From the NCBI GenBank assembly GCA_015956445.1, contig WIUZ02000028.1, positions 1 to 64,000 of the forward strand: a stretch of DNA of 64,000 nucleotides. The letters are read 5' to 3'. Source of the stretch: Thelephora terrestris (taxonomy: Eukaryota; Basidiomycota; Agaricomycetes; Thelephorales; Thelephoraceae). The notes below the pieces were generated by a model. That model was given only the letters and a program-made list of their open reading frames with translations, did no database searches and had not been told where the DNA came from. How positions within the stretch are numbered: the first letter of the stretch is position 1; the number at the start of each line of letters is the position of its first letter. A program made the position numbers and the translations under genes. Below are positions 6,621 to 31,256 of the stretch, piece after piece.

Positions 6621-8984
6621 GGTCCCCACGAAGGTACGCTCTGCTGGTATCTTGTCCCGAGTATAGCTGGTGAAAATTCATCCAAAATTGCTACTGCATA
6701 TCCCTAGAGATAGAGCCGTTTGGATTGCTTGTTGTTGACGACCTGCATGACTTTGGGATTGGGGTACCCAAGAGGATACTCGCCCATCCAATCCGGATCT
6801 TTTACTCTGTTGGACCAGAAGGAGTCCGGGACCTCAAAGGAAGGTAGGCCGCTTCAAATATGTCTCAATGAGGTTCTTTCCATCCGGAGGTTTGGTCGGG
6901 GGCAATTCTGAAGTTCGCGAGAAATGTGCCTGCCATGAAGAAGATGCCATCAAGGCACATTGAAAATATACTTCATACCTGCAGCACAACGCATGCTTTG
7001 TTTCACACAACTCTCATCCAGTGTTGCATCCCCTTATTTGGTGGTCTCCTTTTTCCTCCTCTCAAAAACGAATCCTGGAACTTTTGTTTGCCCGTGCAAA
7101 CTGGGGCAGCACGCCAACTATTTACATACATGAGTGGGCCTGGTGATCAACTCCAACTCTCTGCAGGAAACAAGTGTCCTGCCTTCCACACAAAAAGACT
7201 CCCAGGGTTAGGCACCTTCTGGTGGCCACCGTCGAGCTGCCAAACAGAAGACATTTGCCCATTGTGGCAGGCGACCTGTGCATCCCCCTCAGCACCAGAG
7301 TCCAGGCCGGTCAGTCAAGATAGTTTGTCCACATCATAGGTCCACCTTGGGTCCACCGGTTTCTAGATTAGCAACGTCAATCTGTTCGCCGAGTAGAATC
7401 ATACAGCTCTCAAAACAACTTTTGACCCATTCAAGATAGACGAACAATACTGACCCCTTCAGTGGCAACTTGAACACCATCCTGTCAAGTCATTTTTCAC
7501 ACTAACAAACAAGAATCACTATGGGAGTAAGTGACAACACTTGCAATCTCACAGGCAAAAGTCTAAAGAATGCTGAAAAGTCTAGGGATACCAGGAGAAC
7601 GGCTAAGAATATATGATAATATCATGGGAGAGAGAGGAAGGACACGGATAAAGAACGAGCAAGAGAACAACAGAGAAAGAGGGGCCGAGAAGGACAGAAG
7701 GATGGGTGTTGGGAACTCTTGAAATTGCTCTGAGGCAGGACAGGGAAGATTGGCGATGTGGAAAAGTTTTAGAAGTCAAGATTGTCAAAGAGGGCTGGAC
7801 GTCTACAGGAGCGAGACAACAATTTTTGGTGGCAAGTGAAGGTGCCACAAAACAAGGAGAATATTGGATGTGGAGATTTTCAACATTTTTTGGGAAGAGT
7901 TGAGAAGGGTGGATCCGGCAACTTCCAAAAGATCACCATGACCCAGGTGTTGCCTGAAGATGATGGGAGGTCTTTAAGGATGATATATGTTTCCCCGCCA
8001 CTGGGTTGCCATTGAATTCTTTGAAACCAGTGACACCTTTGAAAAAATACACAAACCGATAAGGTACGCCGCCCTGTGGATCTGATGTTGCGGATCATGT
8101 CAAGTGGGGACATCGTTTGATATCGGGGTAGCCGAGAAGCTGATATCCACTGATGTGTAACTTACTATCGCGCAATATTGCCTGGCACAGTAGCTATCTC
8201 TAGATATCACCCTGAAAGCCACCTGGGACCTGATCATTCACCCTTAGGGGTATGCACATTCCCTCCTCATTATAGGAGAAATGTGAGTTTCATTCTTGTG
8301 GTTACATTAAGTACTTGAGAGGGTAAGAGTTGTTTGAGAGAAGTCTCAGAAACAGAGATAAATCAGTCCATTGACAACCGTTCATCAGCAACATAGCAGC
8401 GAACTTATTTTTTACGTTGCCTTTTGCTTCTTTTCAGTCGCTTATCTGCCAATTATTATCACATTTGGAAGGCCAACTTTTTTTTATTGACCACATAGCT
8501 TATATAAGTACTACATGATTGTGGAGGTTGTTGGTGATTTGCGATGGAATCGCGGGTTGTGCAAGGGTGTGGGACGATACACCCGCGTTACTCCTGAGAC
8601 CACATAATCTACGTGAGGCCAGTGGGTGAGGGACTGAGGAGGTAGTCCTGGGATGAATATGCGAGGACCCCCGCCGTAATTGGTAAAGTTTGTACACCTT
8701 GAAGATTAGTGTTTTTGTGGAATCTGGCAATCGGAAGCGTGCTGGTTTAGGGTCACCAGCAAACCTAAACATGACCCCTCGTGGCCAACTGGATGACACT
8801 GCTGACGGATACTGCGCCCCAACCACGGGCGCCGTTACACCTCTCCCTCCCTCCCCACGAACGCCAACAGATCATCGGTCGTGTTCGGCTTGGAGTGGAA
8901 GGGAACCAGAGATGAGCAGAGGGATCGACACGGAGTTCATCAGAGGTCGGCACTAATGGTTGTCCCCATCGTTTGAAAAGCAAG
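6621..8984. other. Stretch without a supportable gene
   Basis: Short frames only, on both strands, without motifs or plausible splice chains. It lies between the transposase relic and the left 2.2 kb repeat and is probably intergenic or old repeat DNA. Confidence 0.4.
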
Positions 8985-11216
8985 TGATAACTGCCCTCCC
9001 GCGTTGTGCAGTGTGGGGCGATAAATTGTTCCCAGGCCCTTTTCAACGACAATTATTGATTGCCGGTGGGGAACCGTGTTGCCAAACCGGGCAGGTCCTC
9101 TCGCCCTGCCGGCGTCCGCTCTCGTGCTTTCCCGCAGGCAGGCGAACCCCCTCCCTCGCTGTAGATAGCAATAATTACACTACATATATCCTAATCTAGG
9201 GTTCCTTCGTTGCCTTTTGCAACGAGAGACGTGTTGCAGCCGTGCGAAATATCGACTTCGCAGGTGATGGCGCGATGCCTCCCTACCGTGAGCGCCAAGC
9301 TCCCCGACGCGAACCTCCGCGCCGATTTCCAGTCGGGAAATCCTCCTCCTCCTCCCTTGGGGCTTTTCCCGGGGTTCGCGGACGTACCGTGACCGTGAGA
9401 AGGAGAGTTCTTCGTCCCTATTGGCTCACGTTCACCCAATGTTTCCGATCGGCGCCCACGACGCTGCAGTACAACTTCTTGTTTCGTCGTCTTCCCCTCC
9501 TCCCGATCCACTCAGCCACATCGTCTGCCCTCCCGTCTACTCAACCTGGCATATTGCAGCTCGTGGGACGCCCGATTCTGTTCCCGATCTACTGATCCGT
9601 GTGGATCGTTTGACGGACGCCTCCCCCTTTCCCGCTCGGTAATCCACCCTTCCTCATTCGTTATCTCACTTATCGCATTCTTCGTCGAGCTGGTCACGTC
9701 CCAACTTAGCCTTTTGCTTTCCTTTCTACTTATTTACTTCCTTGTCGCACTGCTCGATGACGATGCCGTCTCCTTCTATTCCGTCCCACCTTCCTCCTGC
9801 CGCGCCTTTGATAGGTCGACAGACCCCTCTGGATTTGTGCTTCCGTCTTTCCCAGACCGGTAATCTTCTTTCCCCTCAACCGTTTTCCTGTTTATTGTGT
9901 CCCCCAGATCCTTCGCTTCTGGTTGGTCGGCGGATGCTGACTTCTCCCGACCCGCCCGCATTGCCCCTCCATCGTCGACAACCACCCTCCCACCTTCCCC
10001 ACTGGCCAATCGTCAATCATTGGTTGATAGGTACCGTCCCGCTTACTACCCGCTTCTCCCTCCTTTCAGGTTTGGCGAGAAAATTCCTCTCGCATTTACC
10101 GGCGGCCACGCTTCTCGCGTTTGTGTTTCCTAGATGGACACGCTTCTCGCTCGGGCCGTTCCCCATAGATGGCGGCAATACCCCCCTTCTATTCGTTTCT
10201 TAGTTATCGCGTCTGCCTTTGACAATATTCTCCTGATTGGCTACGAATGTCGTACGTTTGCATGCCACCCGGCTCTGACACGCTCCTCCCTCCCTCAGAT
10301 TTGCAGCTTGCCTCCTCCATTTGGTCACCCACATGGCGCGTCTTCATCCCCCTCGCCCATTCATTGTGTTTGCCTGGCTCCCACGCTTTTAATTGGTGGA
10401 TGGTCCCTCCTGGATCGGTAATCGTCCTCCCGCCACTCACTTTTGATCGGTCAACGGATTCTCGCCCATTCCCGACCCACCCACCCCTCTGGCTCGGAGG
10501 ACCGGAAACGGAACTCGAGATTCCCACCGTTTCACCGCCCGTCGAAGCAACCCTTGCCGTGCGGCGCGCACGGTCCGCTTTCCGCCTCGGCGATCCACTC
10601 AGCGCTCCAGGGTGTTGTACTTCTGATTCAACAACAGGCGTCAGCCTAGTTTGGCTATACACCTCCTCCTGTTCGTTTGCTGACCGCGTCATCCAGCAGT
10701 CACGGCTCTCCCCTTCCCAACCTACTCCCATCCTCTCCTCAGCACCGCAATCCAACTTCCCCTCATTTCCAGCACCTCTGGTCAACGGATACCTACGGTC
10801 CACATTTCTATGCCGAAATCAGCTGTCTACTGCCCCCGCCTCACTCACCCACTAACATATCCCGTCGCTTGGACGGATCGATCTTTGGGGTGAGCTCCTT
10901 CCTTTCTGGTACGCCTATCGGCCCTCTTGTGAAACACCAATTCAATGTGTCCTTCCTGCGCTTCTCAGCCACAATCCACGTCCCTCGATGATCTCATTTT
11001 CCTCGACAACCACGTCCCTCGATGGTCTCGTTTTCCTCGACAACCACGTTCCTCGATGATCTCGTTTTCCTCGGCAACCATGTCCTCACCCCTTGCCGTG
11101 TTTTGTGTTGAACATGTTTCCCCTCGTGCCCTTTCCTTCATCAAAACTCCCTTATCGCATCCCCGGTGAGTTCGTCTTCGGCAGCTGCTACATCTCACCG
11201 ATATAACTCCGTATCA
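8985..11216 (+). repeat. Left copy of a 2.2 kb repeat, inverted relative to 29,066-31,227
   Basis: The sequence matches the reverse complement of 29,066-31,227 almost base for base. A position x here pairs with about 40,212 minus x until the 34-base tandem block, after which the offset grows by about 66-68. Similarity starts abruptly at TGATAACTGCCC (8,985) and the near-identity stops after CCGTATCA (11,216). The plus strand is strongly pyrimidine-rich. Open frames inside it (for example 9,742-10,203) are low-complexity Pro/Ser/Leu strings of the kind produced by C/T-rich DNA, so I do not call genes. No flanking target duplication is visible: GCAAG before, GGTGT after. The unit could be a non-autonomous mobile element, or the end of a larger one. 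Confidence 0.85.
10983..11084 (+). repeat. Three tandem copies of a 34-base unit
   Basis: CCTCGATGATCTC-type units begin at 10,983, 11,017 and 11,051, each with TTTTCCTCG and CAACCA(C/T)GT. The inverted copy on the right carries a single unit (about 29,195-29,240). The two extra units account for nearly all of the length difference between the two 2.2 kb repeats. Confidence 0.85.
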
Positions 11217-13350
11217 GGTGTTTTTCGCCTCTTTCCCTTCCCAGTCCATCTGTTGATCACCCCGATCGTTTTCTATGCGCGGGTATAATTCCTTCCGTGC
11301 ATGGCTGACTCACGCCATCGTTCGATAGCCACATTCCCGTTCGCAACCCATCCTCCTGACTTCCCAACGCACCCCATCTGCTTTTGAACTCGCTCCACAC
11401 TGCTCGCTTACAGATCCCCGTGTCTCGGTGTAGATAGATCCTGTACCGGGTATGCTCAGCACAGAATCCATTCATTTGTACCTGCCGACTCTGCATTTCA
11501 TCCGGCAGCACCCGGAATCTCCATCCCCAGCTCTGGCCTAAATCGTCATCACCATCCCTTACACTGCGACGACTTGTTGCAGATCGTCCGATTGCGTGGG
11601 AAACAACTGTATAAGTTTATATGCCCTCGCTGAGCCGCCTCCAGCGAGCCGCTCAGCGGCCTACCCCACACATTCCAGGTTCAACCCAGTCCCACCCGTT
11701 CTCCGCTCCTAAGCAGCCAGCCAACCGTGTCGTCGCTGCATCTACTCGTTTTCACGTTCTGCGGTGTGCGTATCCCGCTCTTTTCTCGGCCCTTTCGTGA
11801 GTACCCGTCCAGCGGTCCCCACTTCTCATCGACACACCTATATGCCAGCCGTCTTCCAGCTCCCCGTATCCCTCTCCATCGGTTCTCGTGGCCGAACCAT
11901 CCGTGTGATCGCCTCGAATTCCTAATGTGTGTGGATTCCGTTCCGCACCGCTCTTTCCTTCCGCTTGCGTACATGCGTCCAACTTTCCACCCCTGCCTTT
12001 GTGGTTCACTTATTGGGTTGCTTGTGAGGTGCCAATTCACTACTCTTTCTCGTGCTCTTTCCAGACAACCTTACGTCTATCAACGTCTCATGTTTTTCTG
12101 ACAACCACGCCCCCGCCTCGTCACGCGCCACTCCTTGTCGCATCCCATGAGCACACTTCTTCTAGGCCCTTCCGCAATCTTACTCCGTCTGTGTTGGAAA
12201 TACCCCTATCACATCCTTTGAGTATTTGCTTAGTATCCCCCACCTCTCACTGACATACCTCTGTTACGCGTTACAATTCCCTCGTTTCCCTCTCTGATTC
12301 TCGTGGCCGAACAATCCGTGCATCCGCCTCGATCCCTTCTTCATGTGTGTAGGTACAATTCCTTCCCAATTTCTCCCTCGGCTTGCCGTCCTACTTCCCC
12401 TCATTCCCCGGTTGGGCAATCTACCCTTTGCCTTGTTCGTGTTCCCACCCATCTTCCGGACGATCCAACCCTTCCGGTCAGTTTATTCCTCTTCTGGTTC
12501 ACCCATCGTGTTACTTGCGAGACGCCCATCTAATCTTTCTTGTCGTGTCTTTCGCAGAAGCGTTACGTCCATCAATGTCTCCTTCTCTTCCGATAAGCAC
12601 ATCCCGCCCCGTTCAATCATTGTCGGGTCTCGCGGTGAATATGTCCTCAGGTTCTCTTGCAGCTGAACCCCTCCCGAAAACGCCTTTACCACAGCTTTTG
12701 TGAGTACCTGTTCGACAACTCCCACCTCCCGCCAGCGCCCCATACCCATCTCCTCTGGTTCCCCTGGCCAAACCATCTGTGCGCTCGCCTCGATCTCTCC
12801 TCCATGCGTGTAAGCCCCATTCCTTCCCGCCCTCTCTCTCTCAGCTTGCCATCTTACTTTTTCCTGTTTGATCCGCTTCCGTTCCCCTGGTTGGCAAATC
12901 TACCCCTCGCCTGGTTCGTTTTCCCACTCATCCCCCAGCTGGTCTAATCTTTCCGGTCAGTTTATTCCTCTTCTGGTTCACCCATCGTGTTACTTGCGAG
13001 ACGCCCATCTAATCTTTCTTGTCGTGTCTTTCGCAGAAGCGTTACGTCCATCAATGTCTCCTTCTCTTCCGATAAGCACATCCCGCCCTGTTCAATCATT
13101 GTCGGGTCTCGCGGTGAATATGTTCTCAGGTTCTCTCGCAGCTGAACTCCCCCCCGTCGTCAAAAACGCCTTTACCATAGCTTTCGTGAGTACCTCACTG
13201 ACTCCATTCCAGTCGCTATCCAGCCCCCGTGTCTGTGCCCTCCGATCTTCTCGGCCGTTTCACTCCTTCTCGGGGAACAACCAACTCTCGTTGTCGTTTA
13301 ATAGCTACATCTCATTGTCCGCCGTTTATTCCCGAGCCCTTATGTATGTT
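11217..13350 (+). repeat. Array of diverged ~480-base repeat units
   Basis: A unit recurs with landmarks CGTGAGTACC, then TCTCGTGGCCGAACCATC, then CCGGTCAGTTTATTCC, then CATCGTGTTACTTGCGAGAC and CGTCCATCAATGTCTCC. Starts are near 11,788, 12,219, 12,702 and 13,186. The segment 12,472-12,668 is repeated nearly exactly at 12,951-13,147, a period of 479 bases. All units are C/T-rich on the plus strand. Related units sit on the opposite strand at 27.8-29.1 kb, again next to the 2.2 kb repeat. I see no coding capacity. The GTGAGT strings look like splice donors, but no matching exon chain was found. Confidence 0.75.
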
Positions 13351-14975
13351 TAGCCTACAATCGTTTGTGTAAATACCCCGACAGAACCTCTCTGTCGAAC
13401 TACAACATTCGGAATTTGTATCCCTAACCTATCATCACTGTGCTCAGCGAAGGCTTGTTCCGGATCGTCCGATACTTTTGTGAGAGATGAAAGTACGAGA
13501 GGGCGTCTAGTATTACAAATTTGCCATTCAAGTCTGCAATACCCCTCCAACAGGCTCCCTACCCCTCAACGTTCAACCACAACTTCCTGTAGCCCATCCA
13601 GCACAACCTTTCCAAATCTGATCTAATTTCGTTAGCTCAATCCCCATACGTCTCGCAACAGGGAACTCCAAGCTGGCCACTCATGCCTTATCATCGGCCG
13701 CCCAGGATTAGCCCGATGTCGTCGTCCTGCACATCGACGTTCACCGTCGTGAAATTTCCACCAGAAGATGCAGCTCCCTTGCCCGGTCATCGCCACTATC
13801 GTGCCCTTCCTAGTTATCCCAGGTGTCTTCTCAAGATCTCGACGCTAGCAGGCCTCTTGTTCTCAGTGTCGTCCTCTCTGCTCACGAATCAAGTCTTAGG
13901 TCGTTGGTTCATCTTTCACCACTTCAACCTTAGTTGTATATCTTTTCCCTCGTCCGCAACCTGCCGTTCCTATTGCAAGAACCTTCTCTCACTGCCTCGC
14001 AGCCTTTTTGCAAGTTTTGTGGGGTTTCGCACTTCACGGCACAAGCTCGCTCCCACTCTCCACCTACGCAAAACAGACGTCTCGGCACACACTTTACATT
14101 GAACTCAGGTGAGCAGCACGTCGCGTGCTATCTCTGATCTGCATTGACCGAAACAAACCAACAGTAACAACGCACCGCCCATCCTTCAATCCCCTTCCTG
14201 CTCCCCTCTGCGCCCTGCAACCCATCTTCCAGATCTCACGAAAATGCCGGGGAGTCCAGCCAGTCTCTGGTCCTCTCCCACGACTCACGCCCTCTGCCGT
14301 CTTCCTCACCATCTATCCAGACCTAGCCTATGACAGGCACACCAAATACTAAGTCGCAAGCTCCGTTCGTTGCAGCTTTTTGCATACTTACACGCAAGCC
14401 GTTCATATACCTACTGTTCTAGTTAGATCGTATTATTCACCAGGTGCTCGACGTCACCTTGCGCCTGACTATAAACAACGTTAGCTTGAAGTTCAAAGAC
14501 TTCTCGGTTTCAGCGCGCCTTGTTCCTTCTCTCCCTCGTCTGGAACCTAAACCCACCTTGTTCGACCTGCGTCCCTCCCATCTCGCCACAGTAGAGCCGA
14601 CTACCTCTTGTTTTCCAGCGCACAACGATAATGTGCAAGTCATTTGATACCTCGTCAACTCCAACTCGCCTTTCCTCGAATGTTCACCCCGCCCGCCTTC
14701 CTCCGACCCGCCTCATACTGTATCCCCACGCGCACAAGTCCGTTAATATGGACCATTTCTTGTGTGTGCTGACGCACGCATTCTGAGCGTTGGTCGTCGG
14801 AATCGACCACGCTCGTTTTTCCACTCGGCGCCTAGCAACGACAATGAACTTTACATATAGCCTGTAGAATTATCTTGTTCGTTCGATCCTCCACATTGTT
14901 AGCATGGTTGAACTGTATATTCATTTGTGCGCGTACATGGAGTCAAGGTTTTCGGCCAAGAAATACATACCAAAA
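13351..14975. other. Non-coding stretch downstream of the KDZ gene
   Basis: Still pyrimidine-rich to about 14.6 kb, with no convincing gene. Parts near 13,370-13,480 resemble repeat-array DNA around 11,540 and 28,690 (shared GATCGTCCGAT). The 3' end of the KDZ element should lie here or in the array, but I could not identify a terminal inverted repeat. Confidence 0.4.
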
Positions 14976-17900
14976 TCAGGACATATAGTAGTCGTCGTCG
15001 TATTCGAAACCAATCCCAAGCTTATCGCTAGTCTCTCCCTCGTTGTAGATTTTACAATCGGCATCAAGATCCAGACCAATCTCGTCGTCGCTGTCATCCT
15101 CGTCATCAGAGTCTCCCGGTTGGGCGACGCCATCCTTTTCACGAGGAGTAACCACTCCTGTCGAGGACAGGCCACTTGGCGATAGGCTCTCGTGGACACT
15201 TGAGGAACCTGGTGGGTACCCCACTGCTGGATGAATAATCTCAGCAGTCCAGGTATAGGTTTTCGTCCATGCAGGGTCGAGCCCCAACCCGAGGAGACGG
15301 GGTAGCCACTGACTAACCAGAGAGACTGCGAGCTGGTGATACGTGTCCGCCTGCCTGCGAGCGTAGGCGTCGATCCCGTGTTGAATGTCGGCTGTGACGA
15401 GGCCCAAGCGAGACTCAGCTTTTTCACCCCACCAAGTAGACTTCCACTCGAGGAATGCAATGATCCGGCGCATCTCTTCCTGGAGTAACTCTGACTCCTC
15501 CTTCCAGCGGTCCGCTCTTGCCCTACATGTCATCCACTCATGGCGGACCGTTTCGTTCACTTCCTGCTCGGAAGGATCATGAGACCCTGAAGATCCACTC
15601 CAGATCCAAGACATGGTGTAACGGCCATCTCCGACGCCCTGCTCGTCTAGCTCCTTCCCCGGCCCGCGGTTGTCATTGTCGGTGAGCTCATGATACTCCT
15701 TGCGCCAATCGCCCGTGGGATCCAAAGAAAGGAGTGCGGTGTATGCGAGACGGTAGCGCCGTACCACCCGGTTTACTCGAACTTGGACCCCGGATTCAAC
15801 GGACCTTGACTTCGTCTGAACCTTTTGACCTTCTCCAACCACATTGGATCTGAAATACGTCCTCAGGCTTCGGAGGGTCCGCCTGAGACGCCTCAAGTCC
15901 ACCAAGCCGTCTTGGGCTTGGGCTAGGCGAAGCGTGAGCTCGGTTTCCGCAATACCCTTGTGACATAACAATCGTTCGTCCGGGGAGAGTTGGGAGGGGA
16001 GGGAGAGTGGCCAGAGTTCAGGTTTTGCTTCGTCAAATTCGTACGAATCTTCGGAGGTATGATGGTCTCGTTCGCCGGGTAGGTATCCAGACACCTGTGG
16101 CATATACACAGCCTGGGCGGTCTTCCACAGCTTGACCCGTCGCGCGAGAGCATTCCTTCGCTCCTGAATTTCTGCTTTCTGTGGATCTGTCCGTGGTGTT
16201 TTGGACGCTAGGTGTGTTAGGACTTGCTGTCTACGAGAGTGAGGGGAATGAAATCCTGCACGTCAAGAGAAGTAGGGCTACACGTACTGTTGGTCCTCGA
16301 GTTCGAGACCCATACGTACAAAGGAAAGGGGTGATAGTTGATGGGGGAGCGTATTGTTAGCTGTGGGATCAAGCGCTTCGATCTCTGCGAGTTTTCGCTT
16401 TGCGGAACTGAAGTTCGAAGCTACAAAAACCAGAGTTAGTAACGACAGTGTAATAACGAAGTAGCATGAGCAACGAATATACCTGTCTCAACCACTTTAT
16501 ATGGGTCTGGCTGCAAAGGGTCTACCTCCCACCTACGTTTTATCATCTTCCATTCATGAACCGTCCCATGGGGCCTGTGCTCCTCGAAATCCCTGCAAGC
16601 GTCCTCACTCTTTTTCGCCATGTTGATAGCTTCGCGCAGGTTCCTCAGTAGCAGCGGCCCTGCAGTTGGCTTGTTAGTCGTTGCATAAATTCAATCAACA
16701 TATAGAGATCTACCAAATCCAACAATCTTCCGCCAATTCCATCCACCCCAATGACCATCGAGTGCAGAATGTCGGGCGCCAGCACCCATCTCTCGTGTGG
16801 AAATCGACGCCGGGTTGGTGTGAGCCCATCCCGACTCGATATTCTCCCCATGGGTACGTCCGACGCCCGGGCGGTAGTTAAACGAGTACCGTGTGTGACA
16901 GCTTGATCCATGAGCAGGGAGGTGGAACTTTGGGATGAAGAATTCCAGCGCGAACTTGTCCTCAGGAATATGGAGCTCGTCGGAATAACCCTGAATCCGT
17001 TGGAACAATTTGATGGACCAACGGCACGCGATATCGTAAGAAACCTTGACTTTCTTGATCTTCTCGTCTTTCATGGTGGACAGGAAGATGTAATCCATGT
17101 TGACAAACCTTGTACAAAATGATTAAACACGAAGGTGCACAATTCGTGTACAACATACCTCTCTCCCTTTTGTAAGTCGACAACACCATTTTTACGAATG
17201 AGACCGTGCCGACATACTATGGCACCCACGCCAGAGACGGTGAAATCTTTCGATCGTTTTGAATTTGCATGGTTTACCGCATGGAACTCGGTTCCACACG
17301 TCTCGATCTGTTGAGGAATGAACACGTGAAACAGTGGAACGAGCAAGAATTCCTCACGTCAGCTTCATCGGTATGTCTCTTGAGATGGGCGTTGAACTTT
17401 TCGACATTCACAAAGTATGCCAAGCCAGACCCGAGCTCCGGATCTGTGATCCCCCGCGTCTTTAGCTTGAGTCTGAAGTTTGCATCTATTGCAACAAAAA
17501 GGCTATACAGCCACCTACAACGAAGAATCACTGGGTGTCACGGTACAAGATGGTAAGGAGGGGACATACGCCTTATCGTCAGGTTCGTTCTCCCATTCCG
17601 GAGGTAAATTCCGTCCTGGATGCGGACACGCTGGGCACTCAATCGCCAGAGCCCCGTCACCTAGTTCGTCAATCGTTGCAGAGGTGTGTCCTGCTGCCCC
17701 TCGCTTGATTTCCTTGAGGTGGCGCCACTGTCGGACACACCGCGAGATCTCGTGATATCTGTACTGTTAAATGATATAAGCTACAAAACTCACGTTACAG
17801 ATTGACTGACACACCTTGATCTTTGTATGTCCACGATTGTCGGTCTTTTGCATGATCGCGGTGTAGAAGTCGTACAGGTTTAACTTCCCTTGCATCGATA

Positions 17901-18865
17901 TTTTGTGATATGTATCCAAGAGATCGAAGGTGAAGACGGTCTTCGGCTGAAGAATTGATGCGGGGAACCAACGAACCCTCAGGAACTGGCGGAAAAGGTC
18001 CAGGAACGAGGTATGGGGGCATGTGCAAAACCGAATGCGGACGAAATGGTAACCAGAAAGATCAACGACAAAGATGCGTTTGGTGTCTGTATTCACAGGG
18101 CAGGCGCCGCCAGAATGAGAGAGGTTGATGACCAGCCCGAGGCTTTCGAGGGATACGGTCTCGAAGAAAGCACCATTCCACCGCTTAGGCTGACATCAGC
18201 TCGAGTCACTGGCACGGGTCCCTCACATACCTGTATTTTGTGGAGCGGGAGGTCCCGGTGGAATAAAACCGTGCACGCTGAGCAGCGCAACGTCCCCTCC
18301 AAACAGTCGTAACATCTGAATGTGGCTGGGTGGCGCGAGCAGTCTGGGCATGGTTGGGAACAATTTGACGCGTCACCCAAACCTTCCAGACGTAACAATT
18401 CGTCGAGAAATATCGATCGATGCCGAACCCACTGCTCCATTTTTGTCTGAAATCGCGAATGAGTTTGAGGTGGCGGGAGAAAAATAACGCACTTACACTG
18501 TCATTTTCCTGAACAGTCCTTATGCGCCTCCGCTTTTTGTCTTTTTTCTTGACGGTGTCGGAAGGGGACTCAGCATCTGCCAGCACCCCGGTCTCCTCAA
18601 GGGCATCGACCTCGGCGACATTGACCTCGGTTCTTCCGAGGTTCTTACTCGTCGAGGATTCTTCGGATGGGGGTAGCTGGGAATAATGCTTGAGGGTTCT
18701 CCTACTCGCCTTGATACGTCCCATTTTCTCAGAAGATGAGATGTCCCAGACGCGGACATTCTCCACGGTCTTGTTGTTTGGGTCGAAGTTATATGACTCG
18801 AATGTTGCATTACCTTTCCTTTTCTTGCGAACGGCTTTGGAGCCGCTTCCCTGGCGTTTAAGCAT
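14976..18865 (-). CDS. KDZ (Kyakuja-Dileera-Zisupton) transposase with CxC2 zinc cluster, apparently intact
   Basis: Ten exons give an uninterrupted 1,146-residue frame: 18,865-18,497; 18,446-18,231; 18,189-17,794; 17,763-17,570; 17,514-17,358; 17,307-17,159; 17,108-16,714; 16,659-16,483; 16,420-16,288; 16,230-14,976. The N-terminus is basic (MLKRQGSGSKAVRKKRKG). Residues about 150-190 hold the CxC2-like cysteine cluster (CPDCSRHPATFRCYDC, then CSAC). Fungal KDZ landmarks follow in order: RQWRHLKEIKRG with CPACPHPGRNLPPEWE, WLYSLFVAIDANFRLKLK, FHAVNHANSKRSKDF, DLQKGER, SYDIACRW and GVGRTHGENIESGWA, the last two carrying acidic residues expected at the active site. The C-terminus has LDPTGDWRKEYHELTDND, RGPGKE and SWIW, then an acidic tail. 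No stop, frameshift or missing motif was seen, so the gene may be active or recently so. The encoded enzyme would cut and move a DNA transposon in the nucleus. It sits between the two inverted 2.2 kb repeats. Confidence 0.9.
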
Positions 18866-21661: not shown

Positions 21662-22437
21662 CTAAAAAGATACCCACATACAACCCTTTGCTGACGACGT
21701 AGTATTCTGAGTAGTCGGCGAGTCCACTGGCCGTTGGAGGAACCCGATAAGGACCGGGAACACCTGTGATGATGTATTAGGGTTTGACATCTGCGGCAAG
21801 GGACGATACGAACCAGGCCGAACAAATTCAGGATGATGGGTATAATCAGGGCGGCCGACAAACCTCCTGCTGGAAATGATGAGAGGGTAGCGGCCATGCA
21901 TGATGGGGGCTTGGGTGTCATCCGGAGTTGGGGTTGGCGCTCTAGTTGGGGTTGGGACCGGAGTCGCAACTGGAGGTGCGGTCGCGTTGGCGTTTGGAAC
22001 AGGCACTCGATTGCTGGAGCAGCGACCGAACGTAGAGGTTGACAACGTTGACGGGGTTACGTCGCTGGTACTGGAGACAGAGGTCGAGGTTGAGACCAAA
22101 ATCGCACCGAAGTCCTCGGTCCACGGCTGTTGGATGGGCTCTGGAAGGGGCAAGTGTCATGGCGGAACACTGAGAAGGATGTGAGGAGGATGTGGGACTT
22201 ACCCGGGTCAATCGCAAGAGCGGTGAAGTTTAAAGAGAGCTCTGGCCCAGCTGTATCCAGCAGCCGATCAGCCCTCGTCAAAAGGGTGTCAATGACATAG
22301 CGAATGTCCCTCAGCTCGGCTTCGGGGAGTTGGATCATGAGGTGGAACGACATGCGAAGGAGGCCGTCGCACATGTCGAAGGCAGAGGTAGGAGAGAGTT
22401 CAATGGAACGTCTGGCATTCCGTTGACGAGGCATCAC
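21662..22437 (-). CDS. Hypothetical protein with Thr/Pro-rich linker
   Basis: I do not recognise this protein. The proposed start is the ATG at 22,437 (MPRQRNARRSIELSP). One intron is visible, from gtaagtcccac after ATTGACCCGG to the acceptor CCTTCCAG before AGCCCATCC, joining IDP to EPIQQPWTEDFG. Exon 1 encodes a short helical-looking domain with FDMCDGLLRMSFHLMIQ and LRDIRYVIDTLLTRADRLLD. Exon 2 is Ser/Thr-rich, then strongly Pro/Thr-rich (ATPVPTPTRAPTPTP), ending in a Tyr/Pro/Gly-rich tail and a stop at 21,662. There is no signal peptide or membrane segment. It lies between the KDZ gene and the large gene at 24-27 kb, inside the region bounded by the inverted repeats. The 3' end could include another intron. 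Confidence 0.5.
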
Positions 22438-23984
22438 GAGGTTCAGAGGTGGAGGGGAAACTGCAGGGGCAAAAGGCAAGCTGGGGTAAAATGTGGTGGG
22501 GGTGGGGAAGAGCTGTCGTTCGAGTCCGGTGGTAGTTAAGCATTTGCAGGGCTGAGCTTTTGGGTACTCGAACATCTTGAAAGGGTTTTTGTGGGAAAGA
22601 AACCCCAGCGTGGAGGTTGCGTGGCTTCGGGCAAGAGCGACGATCTCCCAGAACTAGCCACCCAATCACCACCGATCTGATCCCTGTCCCGACCTCAAAG
22701 AACGAAGAGAGATCTACGCGTCAACGTGTCAAATTTCGACGTTCAACGCCAACAAGCAATTGTCTAGAAGGTGGTCACATCAATTCGGGTTTCCATTCAC
22801 TCACATTCTCGTTCCTCGGACTGCCCAAGAAAGAGGTCTAATTTTGATAAGAAACATTTGCATCAAAATTGGCATGACCACTGCTTGCACGAGCGCGATC
22901 CCCTGCGATAAACCTGGATGGTCCACTACCGTACGCTGCCAACACTCCCGGAATGGAGCGTTGACTCGTACGATACCGGTGAGCACTTGAATTCCCGGGG
23001 AGAATCGTGTTCTCATGCACATGGTCTAAGCCTTTTGTTTACACGCTCAGACCTGATTTTCCGAAATTAGTTGTATGCCGACGTTCCATTCCACCACATC
23101 ACACCGAATAACGTGACCGGTGCCCACCGAGCACTGAGGCATATGTTCGCTCACCTCTTGGATACTCTAGTTGGGCGCGCAGAACGTTGGTATACTCCGA
23201 CCGCCACAACGCAGCATGTCGGTTGAGCTGGTGCCTCCTAGCCGCAATAATAGGCACTCTGGAACATCGCACGTGGGTGGGTAATTAGCCAGAATCTAGC
23301 ATCCGAAGCCAGACTTGCTATCTAGGCGTTCATTATTACAGGATCAGCCGTATTGACCACGATTGGATTCGACTCCGAAAGAGACTACATGCAGGATGCC
23401 GGTCACCGTCGATCGCCACGATAAAGGCATATTGACCAACGCCACGGACGTCGACAGAGCTTGTTGTCTCCCAGGGGTAACGGTCGGCATCCCAAGACTC
23501 TGCCGTTTGGTGTATGGCCCTCCACGTTTGGGCGCGATGGTTGAATCTTTCAAAGAAGGCTACCTACCTGGTACTCGTCCGTACGATTGGCCACGACTAA
23601 ATCAGAAGCCGATCCCACGTGTTGACATTGTCAATTAGCGTGTTGCCCTCCGAGGCTACAGCTCTGAAATCCTAACAGGTATGTCCCTCTCTAGACTTTC
23701 GCAAAGTCAGAAAATCAAACCGGAAGATAAAATATCCAGGTGGCAATTGTTCAGAAAGTTTGCGCCAATTGTTTGTCGAGTTGCCGCACTCGCCTTCCGG
23801 CCTTCGGCGCAACGCTGGAATTTCTCAAGAAAATCTTATTATTTTAATAAATACCTTCCGAATTAACACAGCAGGAGATGTAGTTGAGGGGCGAATATAT
23901 TAAGAGGCTTGTCGGCCTACGTCTGATTACATCCAGTCCCCATACCTTGTCTCAAATCTTTGCTCTTAACATCGTCTCATCCCA
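22438..23984. other. Intergenic stretch
   Basis: This separates the divergent hypothetical gene (minus) from the large plus-strand gene, so promoters of both should lie here. Short frames near 23,340-23,640 on both strands have no recognisable content. Confidence 0.4.
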
Positions 23985-26900
23985 ATGCCATCTAAGCGGT
24001 CGGAGGAGAAGAAGAAGGCCCAAGCAACGACGGCGGATGCCCCCAAGGTGTCCCGGGTCGGGTGGAAGACCGGAGAGCAGTTGGAGTGGATGCTCACCGA
24101 GTGGGCGAGTTTTGTCCATCATCAAAACGAGAAGACACTAGATCGTTTCTGGCCCCGCGTTTACCACGGTTGGGCTACCCGGTGGCCGATCATTCCCAGT
24201 CCCGAGTCCGTGGCAAAGCACGGTTCCAAGGAAAACGCAATCCTTGTTATTCGTATGGAACTCCGTACGGTACGTCAAGTAGGCTCCTCTTCTCATACTT
24301 ATGTGACTCATCCCTCTTCAGAAAATTCGCAATTGGTTTCACAACCACGGCCGCCCGGGTTCCAAAACTGGCAAGTCAGACTTACGGCTCACTCAAGGCG
24401 ACAAACGAAAGCTTGCTCCGGTTCAATTTTACTGTTCCTACGCCTGGAACAAGGGCCTTGAGAAGATTGTGCTCGACCGATGGCAAGCTCAGAAACACTC
24501 TTACATGTCAACGGACGACGACGACCCCACCGCTGACACGATCGATACGTCTGGTTCCGGCTCACACATCCCCATAAACTTCAAAATCATGGTCGCAAAG
24601 GAACAATACAACTTGTTAACTCCGGCGCAGAAGAAAGAGATTGACAATCGCCGCGAGGAGGATGTACAGAAAAAGTACAGGTCGATACCGGATATCAATG
24701 ACGATGGAGAGAGGATTAAAAAGCTCCGCGAACACCATCGGTGAGAGTTTCCTGTTGGTCACTGCCTGCGGTACCCTCTCTAATCAGCCATCAAATCTAG
24801 AAACCAGCCATCGATCTCGACTTCAATTATGCGCGTTATCAAGAACCTTGAAGACCAGACGGGGGCCATCGCGCATGTACTGGTTGGTTATATGGACCCT
24901 GAGACTGGAGCCCCATCGTTCGCAGGGTATGTTCAACTGCAGTGCAGCTCCTACACTCCGTCGCTTTGTCTAACACTTGTTTTTTGAATCAAGGTATTGC
25001 CAAGGGAAAACAACCGAGGGCCTGGGCTTTAGTCATTTCTATGGGGATACATGGGAGAAGACTGTTGTGAGTCCGTTCAGAGATTGGGGGATGGCTGTAT
25101 TTGGTGGTATGTCCCTTCGAGTGATGTTGGAGGGCACACGCTGACTCTTCCCATTAGAACTAGGCACCAAGCGCCGTTCTTCATTCTTGCTCTCTCCCGG
25201 CGACCAGGGATCCACACCAACTGCCTCATCCTCCACGAATTCTGACGCCATGGTCATTGACAAACCCACGGAAACCCCGCCTGGGTTTGGTAGCGTCATC
25301 GTCGACGGTAATGGACCTGTCGGGGGATCTAGCACGACACCTTTTCTCCACGTCTCCGGAACGACTCAAGCCGTACCACCTCAAACATTGGTTCCCTCTC
25401 CCGCAGTCGACCAACTTTCCGCTATGACACTCCAAACTCCTGGCAGCAATCTCGGATTCCCTGAGCCTATACAGCTGTACGACTTCAACCAACCTATCAC
25501 CTGGGACATGTTTCCATCTTCCCAGTTTGTCGGGAGTGTCAATGACTATCCCGAAATCGTTCTGCCCACGCCCACCGAGTCTCTCGTTGTTACTCCCTCA
25601 TCCACTCGGTCAGTTACACCCAACAATCAAGTCGTTATTCCCCCCACTGTTTGGGAACCTCCTTCTCCTTCTGTTGTTACCACTCTTGTTCTTGATGCCA
25701 CCGCAACCTCTGCTATTACCCATGAACCGGCCTCTCTTGTCACTTCCCCTGTTCTTGAATCCCTTCCATTAACGTCCAACCAAAACATGATTCCCGAGCC
25801 TGCGCCTCTTGTCTCTCCTCTCGTTCTTGGAACCGCCGCAGCCACAGCCACAGCCAATCAAACTGTGGTGTATCCTCTTGCCCATGAATCCTCTTCTCTC
25901 GGTGTTCCTGTTCTTGGACCCTCTCAGATAAATCAAACCACGGGTCTTCCCATGCCCCACCGGCACATTTCTCCTCGCCTTCCTTCTCGTACCCTCGAAT
26001 TTTCTCAGCCCATTGCGCCCAACCAAATTGTTGTCGCCCAAAGACCTACATCTCACCTCCCGGCGACCGACCCCCATTCCACCGCGTTGCAGCATTACCC
26101 TGATCGTTCGGGACTAACGACCAAAAGTTCCTACAAAACTAGAGGCAAGGCTGGCACGACTACCACCACCCGGCGAGACTCGCTTGATGGTGCACCGGAC
26201 ATCATACTGTCGCTGGGCTCATCCGGGTATGAAGTCGCCAAACCTTCATCACAGCCAGGGCTCCCTGTCACGTCCGAGAGCGATACGGATAGCTCCACCC
26301 AGCCCTCCACGCCTAGCACCCCCTCCTCTGCATTCTCTCCTGAGATTATCCCGTCGTCGCAACAGACCATTGAGGAATGTATGGTAATGCCTGCGGAGGC
26401 ACTTATTCAAGCCAAGTCTTCTGCCAGTAACCCCGTGGGGCCTTCGTCTCAGCGGTTGGCTGATGACGCCTCGACCACTCTTGCGGTATCCAAGACCACC
26501 CCTGCCCCTAGTTCGACTCTCCGTGAGGTCCCCACTTACGCCATGGACAAATCAGATTTTCCTTCGTGGTTTGATGACCGCGAGAAACTCGATTACGTTT
26601 TGTCTGTGGAAGGTGGAGAATTGTGGAAAAGGCTCATCGCCGCCTGGATCAGGCAAGAGAGAAGGGTCGGTTTTGGGTTGAATGAAAAACTTGTAAGTGA
26701 GAAAGGCGTCATTGTTTTATGGCATGTTCTAACAACTCGCCGCAGGGAGCAAGTCTGTCCTCAAAGAACAAGCCCCGTATCTTGGGAGATTATTTCAAGT
26801 GGCACCACAATCCCACCAAGGGGGATTCTGTCGCGTTGCCAGCGTTTGGGAACGAGGTAGCAGCCTGGTGGTCAAGTCTCCAGCCCGAGTGGCGCCAAAA

Positions 26901-27285
26901 GGACGAACTCTCCCCCAACGATCAGAACAACTACTCCTATATCCTTGCTGGCGGGAAGAAGGGTGTCTTCCTCCTGATCCTCTGTTTGGCGTGGTGGGAT
27001 AAAGCCCATGGCCGAGATGTGGAGAAAGAGAAGGCCAGACGTTGTGATGCTGCAAAGGCTGGGATGGGCGAAACTGCACTCAACCTTGACAACCTGCTCA
27101 CTCACGAAACTAAGTGGCTCGAAATCGTCAACGACCTCCTCTTCGTCATGGAGCTCGCTCAAGCCTGGCCGGTTCCCGGTGAAGGGACCTCTGGTGCTCT
27201 CGCCGACACCCCCGGCGATACGCGAACGAAACGAGCAGCTGAGCGAGGTTCCGGCTCAACTCGAAAGAAGGCGAAGAGATCCTGA
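23985..27285 (+). CDS. Large agaricomycete-specific family protein of unknown function
   Basis: Six exons give a continuous 1,005-residue frame: 23,985-24,269; 24,322-24,740; 24,801-24,926; 24,994-25,106; 25,158-26,692; 26,746-27,285. The N-terminal part has Trp-rich helices (LEWMLTEWASFV, LDRFWPRVYHGWATRWP) followed by KIRNWFHNHGR, which resembles the WF-x-N-x-R heart of a homeodomain recognition helix, then RKLAPVQFYCSYAW. The centre (exon 5) is a long Pro/Ser/Thr-rich disordered linker. The C-terminal part has KPRILGDYFKWH, a WWSSLQPEWR motif, ILAGGKKGVFLLILCLAWW and a basic end (KRAAERGSGSTRKKAKRS) that looks like a nuclear localisation signal. This arrangement (N-terminal NWFxNH, disordered middle, C-terminal W..LQP.WR and LYWWG-like block) recurs in many agaricomycete genomes as a multicopy family without a known role. 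A DNA-binding function is only inferred. Confidence 0.8.
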
Positions 27286-27769
27286 TCTTGCTCTACACCT
27301 CACTGGCTCCTGATGGCGTCCCTCTTCCCCTTCTGAGTACCCTCTAAAATAATTTGAACGTTTGTTTTACCCCGCGATCTGAATTGCCGTCACCTATCTA
27401 CCTGTCTTTACATGTGTCTAGTCGCGTCCCATGCTGTATGCCTCCGTATTTACGCCCGGCACGCTGTCAACCCACAATCTACCTGCCTCTCTTTACTTAC
27501 GTTTGCGTGTGTTGCCTATTGTGTTACCCGCATTGAAACTTTGATAGGTTTGTCAAAAACGAAGCACAGGTGATAAGAATGATGACTGAGCCGAGGGCAC
27601 CGCTTGTTTGATGGTCAAATTCTCTCACAAACAACGGCCAGATGCATTGTAAGTCGGGACATGTACAATCGTGCGCACGAGAAGACTAGACGTAGGAAAA
27701 TTCTGCACGACAGAGAGAATCGGTCAAGCACGTGCAAGTAATGATTGTATGTAAAAATACAGGGCCTAT
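27286..27769. other. Short intergenic stretch
   Basis: The 3' flank of the large gene up to the start of the right-hand repeat array. No gene or repeat is identified. Confidence 0.35.
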
Positions 27770-29065
27770 CTACACGAAGACTGGACCCTTGCAGGCATTG
27801 GGTGGAACGAGTTCAAGCGCAGGTGAAATACGTCGGGGATGGGGAGCCAGTGGTAAAGAGGGAAGCATACTCATGAAAAGAGAACAACGGTGAAGGTTGT
27901 GCCCGAGAAGGGACAAAAATGGGATTGGGAGGACCTGATGGAAACACACACTGCGGATGCGAGAATGAGTGAGCGGGACGAGGACGCAGTTGTCGAAAGT
28001 AAAAGAGACGTCGACGGACGTAATGGACGGAAGGTCATCTGAAAAGAGCACGAAAAGTGAAATTAATTAGTGTTTCACAAGCAACACGATAAGCGAACCG
28101 GTAGGGAGAGACTTGCCGGAAGTATTGGACCGCCAGGGTGATGAGTAGGAAGACGAACAAGAGGGGAGGCAGATTTGCAGACCGGGGGGACGAAACGGCA
28201 GACCAAACCAGGGAAAGTGGGGTGTAGTGCAGAGGGAGAGAGCAGGGAAGAACGGAGTCTACGCATGAGAGTTTGAGACAATTGCACAGGTGGTTTGGCC
28301 ACGAGAACCAGTGGAGGGGGATACAGGGAGCTGCAAGGCAGCTGAGACGGAGGTGTGGAAGACGAGAAGCTGAGACCATTGAACGGGTACTCACGAGGGG
28401 GACGATAAGAGCGCTTTCGACGAAGAAGGGGAAGTGTACACCATAGGGCGCAAGAACGAGTGCATGGGAGACGATGCGGTTGGCCAGCTTTGTATGAGTG
28501 GAGAACGAGTGAGTTTGAGTTGAATCTGGGAGGTGCGGCGTGGGGTGGCCGGGCTGCTGGAGGTCGTGATGATCGATGAAGAGGAGTACGTGATGGGGGG
28601 CTTAGCAAAGGTACAGAGCGTGGTGAATTATACCATCGTCTCCCGCGAACTCCTGTATCGGACGGATTGCAGCAAGTCGTCGCCGCGTGATGTGACAATG
28701 GTTAGTGCCTATTTACACCAGGGAATTGAAAACCGAGTTGTATATTGTAGAAATAATGACAAGGGGTAAAATCAATTTTAACTCTACAAAATTGAGGCGG
28801 TCACATGGGTGAAACGGCCAAGAGGACTAGCGGGAGGGATACAGGGAGCTAGAAGGCGCCTAGGATAGAGACGCGTCAGCGAGGGGTAGGAGTTTCAAAC
28901 AGTACTCGCAGGGGACTGCGATAAGTTGTTTCAGACAAGGGAGGGGGAATCAAGTCACGGGGATGCTTAGGAGGGAAACACACTCACGATGAGACCCGAT
29001 AATGAGCGAACGGGCAGGAGGGATTGTCAGAAAAGGGACGAGAAGTCAAGCTTCAAGGAAGGACC
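27770..29065 (-). repeat. Right array of diverged ~480-base units, inverted relative to 11.2-13.3 kb
   Basis: Read on the minus strand, this DNA shows the same landmarks as the left array: CTCGTGAGTACCCG, GGTTCTCGTGGCC, TTATCGTGTTGCTTGTGA and CCTTCCGTCCATTACGTCC. It also carries GCGACGACTTGCTGCA near 28,690, matching GCGACGACTTGTTGCA near 11,560. Similarity to the left array is clearly lower than between the adjoining 2.2 kb repeats. The plus strand is purine-rich here. No gene is called. Confidence 0.65.
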
Positions 29066-31227
29066 TGACACGGAGTTATATCGGTGAGATGTAGCAGCTG
29101 CTGAAGACAAACTCACCGGGGATGCGATAAGGGAGTTTTGATGAAGGAAAGGGCACGAGGGGAAATATGTTCTTCACAAGTCACGACAAGGGGTGAGGAC
29201 GTGGTTGTCGAGGAAAACGAGATCATCGGAGGACGTGAATTGTGGCTGAGAAGCGCACGAAGGACTGAATGAATTGGTGTTTCACAATAAGGACGATAAG
29301 TGTACCAGAAAGGAAGGAGCTCACCCCAAAGATCGATCCGTCCCAGCGACAGGATATGTTAGTGGGTAAGCGAGGCGGGGGCAGTAGACATCTGATTTTG
29401 GCATAGAAATGTGGACCGTAGGGTGTCCGTTGACCAGAGGTGCTGGAAATGAGGGGAAGTTGGATTGCGGTGCTGAGGAGAGGATGGGAGTAGGTTGGGA
29501 AGGGGAGAGCCGTGACTGCTGGATGACGCGGTCAGCGAACGAACAGGAGGAGGTGTATAGCCAAACTAGGCTGACGCCCATTGTCGAATCAGAAGTACAA
29601 CACCCTGGAGCGCTGAGTGGATCGCCGAGGCGGAAAGCGGACCGTGCGCGCCGCACGGCAAGGGTTGCTTCGACGGGTGGTGAAATGGTGGGAATCTCGA
29701 GTTCCATTTCCGGTCCTCCGAGCCAGAGGGGTGGGTGGGTCGGGAATGGGCGAGAATCCGTTGACCGATCAAAAGTGAGTGGCGGGAGGACGATTACCAA
29801 TCCAGGAGGGACCATCCACCAATTAAAAGCGTGGGAGCCAGGCAAACGCAATGAATGGGCAAGGGGGATGAAAACGCGCCACGTGGGTGACCAAATGGAG
29901 GAGGCGAGCTGCAAATCTGAGGAAGAGGAGCATGTCAGAGCCGGGTGGCATGCAAACGTACGACGTTCGTAGCCAATCAGGAGAATATTGTCAAAGGCAG
30001 ACGTGATAACTAAGAAATGAATAGAAGGGGGGTATTGCCGCCATCTATGGGGGAACGGCCTGAGCGAGAAGCGTGTCCATCTAGGAAACACAAACGCGAG
30101 AAGCGTGGCCGCCGGTAAATGCGAGAGGAAGTTTCTCGCCAAACCTGAAAGGAGGGAGAAGCGGGTAGTGAGTGGGAAGATACCTGTCAACAAGTGATTG
30201 ATGATTGGCCAGTGAGGAAGGTGGGAGGGTGGTTGTCGACGATGGAGGGGCAATGTGGGCGGGTCGGGAGAAGTCAGCGTCCGCCGACCAACCAGAAGCG
30301 AAGGATCTGGGGGACACAATAAACAGGAAAACGGTTGAGGGGAAAGAAGATTACCGGTCTGGGAAAGACGGAAGCACAAATCCAGAGGGGTCTGTCGACC
30401 TATCAAAGGCGCGGCAGGAGGAAGGTGGGACGGAATAGAAGGAGACGGCATCGTCATCGAGCAGTGCGACAAGGAAGTAAATAAGTAGAAAGGAAAGCGA
30501 AACACTAAGTTGGGACGTGACCAGCTCGACAAAGAATGCGATAAGTGAGATAACGAATGAGGAAGGGTGGATTACCGAGCGGGAAAGGGGGAGGCGTCCG
30601 TCAAACGATCCACACGGATCAGTAGATCGGGAACAGAATCGGGCGTCCCACGAGCTGCAATATGCCAGGTTGAGTAGACGGGAGGGCAGACGATGTGGCT
30701 GAGTGGATCAGGAGGAGGGGAAGACGACGAAACAAGAAGTTGTACTGCAGCGTCGTGGGCGCCGATCAGAAACATTGGGTGAACATGAGCCAATAGGGAT
30801 GAAGAATTCTCCTTCTCACGGTCACGGTACGTCCGCGAACCCCGGGAAAAGCCCCAAGGGAGGAGGAGGAGGATTTCCCGACTGGAAATCGGCGCGGAGG
30901 TTCGCGTCGGGGAGCTTGGCGCTCATGGTAGGGAGGCATCGCGCCATCACCTGCGAAGTCGATATTTCGCACGGCTGCAACGCGTCTCTCGTTGCGAAAG
31001 GCAACGAAGGAACCCTAGATTAGGATATATGTAGTGTAATTATTGCTATACAGCAAGGGAGGGGGTTTGCCTGCCTGCGGGAAAGTACGAGAGCGGACGC
31101 CGGCAGGGCGAGAGGACCCGCCCGGTTTGGCAACACGGTTCCCTGCCGGCAATCAATAAGCATCGTTGAAAAGGGCCTGGGAACAATCTGTCGCCTCACA
31201 CTGCACAACGCGGGAGGGCAGTTGTCA
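29066..31227 (-). repeat. Right copy of the 2.2 kb repeat, inverted relative to 8,985-11,216
   Basis: Its reverse complement is nearly identical to 8,985-11,216, with occasional substitutions and one rather than three 34-base units. It runs from TGACAACTGCCC (31,227 on the minus strand) to CCGTGTCA (29,066). A 403-codon open frame across 29,321-30,532 is interrupted in the left copy and has the Pro/Ser/Leu make-up of C/T-rich DNA, so I treat it as chance. The outer end abuts the coiled-coil gene copy at 31.3 kb. No target duplication is visible: the flanks read GATCA outside and GGTCC inside. Confidence 0.85.
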
Positions 31228-31256
31228 GATCAAAGTTAACAATCTGGACAACCACA

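What the first reader, a model, noticed from the sequence alone, without database searches (positions are those of the whole stretch)
8985..31227. A 22 kb segment bounded by inverted 2.2 kb repeats and carrying an intact KDZ transposase plus two passenger genes
The outer 2.2 kb at both ends are near-identical inverted copies. Inside both lie related repeat arrays, then a complete KDZ transposase (14,976-18,865), a hypothetical gene (21,662-22,437) and a 1,005-residue family protein (23,985-27,285). This layout would fit a large cargo-carrying DNA element with long terminal inverted repeats, mobilised by KDZ. Against it, no target-site duplication is visible at 8,984/31,228, and the repeats may be independent insertions in opposite orientation.
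Basis: partly seen in the sequence, partly recalled or inferred. Interest (0 to 1): 0.72.

Follow-up and report, generated by a model that had tools for sequence, protein, structure and literature searches.

The report
Giant KDZ transposon with homogenised arms
The segment is a real 22-kb fungal "jumping" DNA element whose two long mirror-image arms appear to be copied onto each other, and its two best-preserved copies have traded neighbouring DNA, which marks either a chromosome exchange or an assembly error.

Summary
Observation confirmed; interpretation right in the main. Contig C21 of an unnamed 40.6-Mb genome carries a KDZ element at 8951-31260 (22,310 bp), slightly longer than reported, with arms about 95% identical over 2.1 kb. 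A near-identical full-length copy lies on C19. Target-site duplications exist, 7 bp long, but swapped: C21-left pairs with C19-right (AGGTCGG), C19-left with C21-right (CCCACGG); the latter two flanks are also the two halves of one interrupted repeat. A second pair (C58/C16) shows the same exchange; an element on C1 has its TSD in cis. Cause: recombination between copies or assembly cross-joining; undecided. The 990-residue "passenger" is a conserved second gene: 19 of 22 loci found lie within 15 kb of a KDZ locus, all 19 head-to-head. The small "hypothetical gene" shows no coding signal. In 7 of 7 elements the arms match each other (93-99.6%) but hardly match other families, while the outer 34 bp stay end-specific: concerted evolution, with one conversion patch seen. 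The gene block's orientation relative to the ends differs between families. Known superfamily, unusual architecture.

The parts
8951..31260 (.). Giant KDZ element, 22,310 bp, termini CACTAATGGTTGTCC... and ...GGACAACCACAGCTG
   Evidence: Same extent as C19:245104-267413; 35 substitutions, no gaps, over 22,313 compared bases
8944..8950 (+). 7-bp TSD half AGGTCGG; its other half follows the C19 copy (C19:267414-267420)
31261..31267 (+). 7-bp TSD half CCCACGG; its other half precedes the C19 copy (C19:245097-245103)
   Evidence: target inside an interrupted ~3.3-kb repeat
8951..8984 (+). X-type end (CACTAATGG...), 34 bp, like the X ends of other families but unlike the other end
31227..31260 (-). 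Y-type end (CAGCTGTGG...), 34 bp
8951..11219 (+). Left terminal inverted repeat arm (KDZ side)
   Evidence: 2139 bp at 95.7% to the right arm; 2237 aligned columns at 93%
29063..31260 (-). Right terminal inverted repeat arm (partner-gene side)
30300..30384 (-). Gene-conversion patch: equals the left arm at 20 of 20 sites where the C19 right arm differs
14976..18865 (-). KDZ transposase gene, 9 predicted exons, 1136 aa, CxC2 + KDZ domains
   Evidence: codon-position substitutions 5/15/57 against the C59 relative in one exon
23985..27285 (+). Conserved partner gene, 6 predicted exons, 990 aa, no Pfam or PDB match
31261..33150 (+). Second half of a high-copy ~3.3-kb repeat interrupted by the element; first half is on C19 (243686-245105)
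11220..13200 (+). Subterminal repeats, including 270-bp direct repeats at 12406 and 12885 (92%)
   Evidence: weaker inverted counterpart on the right side, 68-75%

Best explanation
8951-31260 is a giant, recently duplicated member of a two-gene clade of KDZ DNA transposons. The transposase (CxC2-KDZ), probably helped by the divergently transcribed 990-aa partner protein, is inferred to recognise the outermost ~34 bp, which differ between the two ends (X = CACTAATGG.., Y = CAGCTGTGG..), and to insert the unit with a 7-bp target duplication (duplications shown, recognition inferred). Inside these ends the arms, up to 2.1 kb, are copied onto each other by gene conversion (shown as a pattern; one 85-bp patch caught between C21 and C19), so arms match within an element but drift apart between families. 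The two near-identical copies on C21 and C19 inserted separately and now have each other's flanks. As assembled this is a reciprocal exchange between two dispersed copies; whether it happened in the cell or in the assembler is not settled.
For: Second copy of identical extent. 7-bp TSDs paired in trans for C21/C19 and C58/C16, in cis for the 35-kb C1 element; over 12 X and 9 Y ends, 5 exact matches in 108 comparisons, 0.007 expected, none with one mismatch. Interrupted-repeat test: C19-left and C21-right flanks join up on the 3 of 3 uninterrupted copies examined, L040, L041, L042. Terminal pattern: 8 hits, 0 for the reversed control; the broader end pattern 26 hits at up to 2 mismatches, 18 of them with at most one, against 4 control hits. 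Arms 93-99.6% within 7 of 7 elements; between five families, 20 comparisons give 0-823 bp alignable at 67-87%. Outer 34 bp between families: X-X 0.79, Y-Y 0.77, X-Y 0.58; positions 135-534: 0.58 against 0.49 shuffled. Partner gene: 19 of 22 loci within 15 kb of KDZ, 19 of 19 head-to-head. Codon periodicity.
Against: No strain comparison, reads or expression data were available; activity is inferred from similarity. Two elements with both ends in hand (C10, C22) have flanks without a matching 7-mer in cis or trans, and 7 of 12 X and 4 of 9 Y ends have no partner. The role of the partner is inferred from association alone; its C-terminal fold was not predicted with confidence (pLDDT 52.7). Intron positions come from my own scoring, not from transcripts.
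Confidence: 0.85

Rival explanations
1. The exchanged flanks are an assembly error: two copies of 22 kb (and two of 19.7 kb) were cross-joined, and the true chromosomes still carry each TSD in cis.
For: The C21 and C19 copies differ at only 35 of 22,313 sites, with one stretch of 7.3 kb without a difference. Other contigs end near KDZ copies: C1 starts with the reverse complement of the last bases of C7, and C1, C7, C17, C59, C21 and C60 have a KDZ match reaching within 15 kb of an end. The one cis-matched element (C1:3337053) belongs to no near-identical pair that I saw. Two of two wrong by random choice is not improbable (1 in 4).
Against: The assembler kept copy-specific differences and passed through these copies while it broke elsewhere, so it had some support for the joins (inference). 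C10 and C22 also lack matching flanks.
Confidence: 0.5
2. The exchange is real: ectopic homologous recombination between dispersed near-identical KDZ copies made reciprocal translocations (C21/C19 and C58/C16).
For: Exact reciprocal pairing of the four 7-bp TSDs and of the two halves of an interrupted repeat; gene conversion between arms shows that these repeats do recombine. Of 7 elements with both ends in hand, 4 pair in trans, 1 in cis, 2 not at all.
Against: No read-level or second-strain evidence; two of two near-identical pairs being translocated needs two rearrangements in this one strain.
Confidence: 0.45
3. Two independent insertions of a 2.2-kb repeat in opposite orientation happen to flank an unrelated KDZ gene.
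For: No TSD across 8984/31228 in the window itself.
Against: The full 22,310-bp unit recurs at C19 with the same ends; C58, C16, C1, C22 and C10 have paired X and Y ends with matching arms around KDZ sequence.
Confidence: 0.01
4. The arms are similar because they arose recently by duplication, separately in each family, not by gene conversion.
For: Arms hardly align between families.
Against: A conversion patch is seen: at 20 of 20 sites in 30300-30384 C21's right arm equals its left arm where C19's differs. The two end types are shared by the families, so two-ended elements predate them; in fixed bins the within-element identity jumps after position 34 in all seven elements.
Confidence: 0.1

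Closest known systems
Kyakuja elements of Agaricomycetes (Kojima 2025, PMC12730594; sections 3.1.1 and 3.2 and passages read)
   Same: KDZ transposase; 7-bp TSD; 5'-CA..TG-3' termini
   Different: The two Laccaria families described there have no TIRs and carry TET/JBP; here TIR arms of up to 2.1 kb and no TET/JBP match (whose controls were silent too)
Cryptococcus neoformans KDZ1-KDZ3 (PMC12810828; passages read)
   Same: Mobile fungal KDZ elements with TIRs and a cysteine-cluster (CxC1) domain
   Different: About 9-11 kb, TIRs 139-241 bp, TSD 8 bp (KDZ1) or 4-8 bp (KDZ2, KDZ3); no second ~1000-aa gene mentioned in the passages read
Giant KDZ elements of Ectocarpus (to 30.3 kb) and Chlamydomonas (31.7 kb, active), as told in PMC12477816 (passages read)
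   Same: Giant size, KDZ transposase, accessory genes
   Different: Algae; kilobase TIR arms and arm homogenisation not mentioned in the passages read
Mutator-like elements with long TIRs (PMC3310237) and the Foldback element Tetris (PMC4079207); only the start of each abstract seen, in search listings
   Same: DNA elements with long terminal inverted repeats
   Different: Other transposase superfamilies (recalled); a resemblance of layout, not kinship

Membership tests
KDZ superfamily | KDZ transposase domain (PF18758) over the curated cut-off | tested here: met
   196.9 bits vs cut-off 26.6, E 4.7e-58
KDZ superfamily | CxC cysteine cluster ahead of the KDZ domain | tested here: met
   CxC2 PF18803 1.5e-31 at residues 225-331, KDZ at 397-608
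KDZ superfamily | Unit bounded by target-site duplications | tested here: met
   7-bp TSDs, cis in C1, trans in C21/C19 and C58/C16; C10 and C22 unmatched
Kyakuja (Kojima 2025) | 7-bp TSD and 5'-CA..TG-3' ends | tested here: met
   definition
Kyakuja (Kojima 2025) | No TIRs (the two Laccaria families) | tested here: not met
   TIR arms aligned over 0.56-2.1 kb in 7 of 7 elements
Kyakuja (Kojima 2025) | Transposase groups with Kyakuja in a tree | not testable with these tools
   No reference KDZ proteins of fungi at hand; placement in Kyakuja is left open
TET/JBP-carrying KDZ | TET/JBP dioxygenase gene in the element | tested here: inconclusive
   PF12851: 0 matches genome-wide, but the search's 14 control genomes were silent as well
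Zisupton / Dileera | 8-bp TSD (Kojima 2025) | tested here: not met
   7 bp: an eighth base does not match for CCTGCTG, GAATGAT and CTGTGAC; for AGGTCGG and CCCACGG an eighth G would fit as well

The most novel reading that the evidence does not exclude
A clade of giant fungal transposons runs on a split design. Two short, different, strictly kept ends (about 34 bp) carry the transposition signal, and between them kilobase arms are repeatedly overwritten by gene conversion. The arms act as recombination substrates: they flip the gene block relative to the ends (window family against the other families, and C7 against its 99%-identical relative C10) and trade flanks between chromosomes, so that dispersed giant copies generate reciprocal translocations.
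Probability: 0.42. Interest if true: 0.72.

Novelty: new variant of a known kind. Interest (0 to 1): 0.56.

Why it matters
[quoted passage not shown] Here one genome gives ends, TSD length, a conserved second gene and a natural experiment in arm homogenisation. PMC12477816 notes that giant elements are thought to be limited by ectopic recombination between copies; the trans-paired TSDs are the footprint such recombination would leave and make the idea directly testable with long reads. If it is an assembly artefact instead, TSD pairing in trans is a simple test for cross-joined contigs at giant repeats.

Tried and rejected
Pfam on single exons: nothing but one weak FNIP hit at E 1.8; spliced models were needed. 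PDB sequence search with the partner: none. AlphaFold of the partner C-terminal exon with 8 sequences: pLDDT 52.7, not used for a fold search. TET/JBP cargo: no match, controls silent. Subtelomeric location, suggested by many copies near contig ends: no telomere-like arrays in the 16 contig ends read (one TTAGGG word at C22 start, one CCCTAA at C37 start), so contig ends are better read as assembly breaks near KDZ copies. Independent-insertion reading: rejected. Small gene at 21662-22437: rejected for lack of codon periodicity. C10 (17215-53945) and C22 (7014-43249) as units with matching TSDs: not met; C10 is a nest of fragments that I did not resolve. Because of this the probability of the novel case rose from 0.40 to 0.42. 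Naming the fungus: not attempted; no eukaryote collection at hand; that KDZ with CxC2 is common in basidiomycetes is recalled.
Full report
What is there. The window is C21:1-64000 of a 40.6-Mb, 60-contig genome without a name. The inverted repeats at 8985-11219 and 29063-31227 are real. The 2.2-kb left repeat has ten matches in the genome: five full-length (two on C21, two on C19, one on C3) and five partial ones on C10 (two), C7 and C1 (two). The C19 pair is the same distance apart as the window pair, and KDZ and the inner genes recur there, so the whole unit is duplicated. Base by base the C21 and C19 copies differ at 35 of 22,313 sites without a gap.

Ends and target-site duplications. The identity between C21 and C19 runs on past the reported limits, to CACTAATGG.. 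at 8951 and ..CAGCTG at 31260. Directly outside, C21-left has AGGTCGG and C19-right has AGGTCGG; C19-left has CCCACGG and C21-right has CCCACGG. So each insertion made a 7-bp duplication, and the two halves of each now lie on different contigs. An independent test agrees. The C21 right flank (to 33150) is part of a repeat with 39 further matches of 1.65 kb or more (40 of 733 candidates were scored, so a lower bound), and its missing first part is the C19 left flank: on the three uninterrupted copies that were fetched (L040, L041, L042) the two flanks abut, overlapping by 10-18 bases with the TSD in the overlap.

A second pair and a control. C58:1382535-1402230 and C16:248978-268688, about 19.7 kb, carry a related KDZ and the partner gene. 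Their flanks are also exchanged: CCTGCTG left of C58 and right of C16, GAATGAT left of C16 and right of C58. The 35-kb element C1:3337053-3372102 has CTGTGAC on both sides. C22 and C10 have no match. Of seven elements with both ends in hand, four pair in trans, one in cis, two not. Over 12 CACT-type and 9 CAGCTG-type ends there are 108 comparisons, 0.007 chance matches and 5 exact ones; none has a single mismatch. I did not count the one-base-shorter end at the start of C1.

Cause of the exchange. A crossover between two dispersed copies would give exactly this, and so would an assembler that joined the wrong sides of a 22-kb repeat. For the first: the copies keep their own differences and were passed through. 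For the second: the copies are 99.8% alike with a 7.3-kb stretch without difference, and other contigs stop near KDZ copies, with C1 starting where C7 ends, in reverse complement. I hold these about equal.

Genes. A simple intron-aware model gives an open KDZ gene of nine exons, 1136 aa, with CxC2 and KDZ domains. Between C21 and C19 it differs at three residues, the partner at none. The genome has 125 KDZ-domain matches, exon by exon, which I merged by eye into 59 loci. The 990-aa protein has no Pfam match at E 1 and no PDB match, but 69 matches in the genome (46 of 88 candidates scored, so a lower bound), which I grouped by hand into 22 loci. Nineteen of 22 lie within 15 kb of a KDZ locus and all nineteen are divergently oriented to it; about 4% of the genome lies that close. 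The copies share descent, so the binomial value given there (3e-24) is not a fair probability; the point is the conserved pair. The three others are C45 (which does have an X-type end 9 kb away), C12 and one of two on C13. Substitutions by codon position are 5/15/57 in a KDZ exon and 45/26/16 and 55/38/28 in partner exons, but 93/80/89 in the region of the small hypothetical gene.

Arms. In 7 of 7 elements the two arms are alike: C21 95.7% over 2139 bp, C19 95.0% over 2139, C10 93.3% over 1570, C58 98.4% and C16 98.3% over 1392, C1 97.7% over 1696, C22 99.6% over 562 (only 1,049 bp of one C22 arm was fetched, which counted only roughly collinear pieces). Between five families the same kind of arm aligns over 0 to 823 bp at 67-87%, and not at all in 5 of 20 comparisons. 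The outer 34 bp behave the other way: within an element the two ends are 0.54-0.65 alike, between families like ends are 0.77-0.79 alike and unlike ends 0.58. At positions 35-134 the within-element identity is 0.85-0.95 and at 135-534 0.92-1.00; the bins were fixed, so the exact border in each element was not measured. One conversion tract is visible: at 30300-30384 the C21 right arm equals the left arm at 20 of 20 sites, and the C19 right arm differs. The four further differences in this arm are single sites. I infer that selection keeps the two ends different while recombination homogenises the rest.

Orientation. In C58, C16, C22 and C1 the CAGCTG end lies on the KDZ side and the CACTA end on the partner side. 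Incomplete elements agree: C21:148592, C60:1539137, C59:1783992 and C45:117055 have the CACTA end on the partner side, and C59:815149 has the CAGCTG end on the KDZ side. In the window family (C21, C19, C10, and the truncated C3) it is the reverse. C7 is telling: its KDZ fragment is 99.2% identical to that of C10 and 81% to the window's, its Y arm is 97-98% identical to C10's, yet its KDZ points at the Y end and not at the X end. So the gene block has changed orientation relative to the ends, once between families and perhaps again recently, as recombination between inverted arms would make it.

Methylation trace. Outside the patch the C21/C19 differences are 14 transitions and 1 transversion, 11 of the 14 at CpG; against C3 (alignments over 94% identity only) 381 transitions and 43 transversions, 271 of 381 at CpG, while CpG makes up 22% of C contexts. 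This looks like deamination of methylated CpG.

Comparison with what is known. Kojima 2025 (PMC12730594; sections 3.1.1 and 3.2 and passages read) gives Kyakuja 7-bp TSDs and CA..TG ends but no TIRs, and 8 bp for Zisupton and a Dileera. The Cryptococcus elements are 9-11 kb with 139-241-bp TIRs and 8-bp or 4-8-bp TSDs (PMC12810828; passages). Giant KDZ elements of about 30 kb are known in algae (PMC12477816; passages). In Pleurotus, intact KDZ genes are preceded by CxC2 (PMC7641404; passages). I found no description of kilobase KDZ arms, their homogenisation or this partner gene in the listings of searches and the passages read; most subscription journals are not in that library, and the Marasmius KDZ TIR motifs are in a supplement that I did not read (PMC8290104; passages). 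By terminus and TSD this fits Kyakuja; by TIR it does not; I file it as KDZ, not further.

Noticed in passing
window 31264-33150; C19:243686-245105: Halves of a ~3.3-kb repeat with 39 further matches of 1.65 kb or more at 87-93% identity (capped list); a piece of it also adjoins the C10 element end.
   Followed up: partly
window 3001-4783: Part of another high-copy repeat, 39 further matches at 94-98% identity (capped list).
   Followed up: no
G000 C1:1-45 and C7 last 45 bases: C1 begins with the reverse complement of the end of C7, 29 bp outside a CACTA-type end, and the left flank at C59:1783992 carries the same bases. Contigs seem to break at copies of one KDZ insertion or of a larger duplication.
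   Followed up: partly
C21:148592-170749 and C60:1539137-1559942: Both contigs end in KDZ elements with partner gene that score almost alike but have different left flanks, each cut off by the contig end.
   Followed up: no
C3:260306-277744: Copy about 96% identical to the window element with the left arm and KDZ, an 840-bp insertion in KDZ, truncated before the partner gene.
   Followed up: yes
C10:5810-53945: Nest of KDZ fragments, a partner gene interrupted by a Y-type end, and a high-copy repeat; ends 36.7 kb apart without matching TSD.
   Followed up: partly
window 8951-22985: Substitutions between copies are mostly transitions at CpG, a sign of cytosine methylation.
   Followed up: yes
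window 10000-14000 and 28000-30000: Strong, mirror-image strand skew (GC skew about -0.32 to -0.34 and +0.35) in and inside the arms; cause not studied.
   Followed up: no
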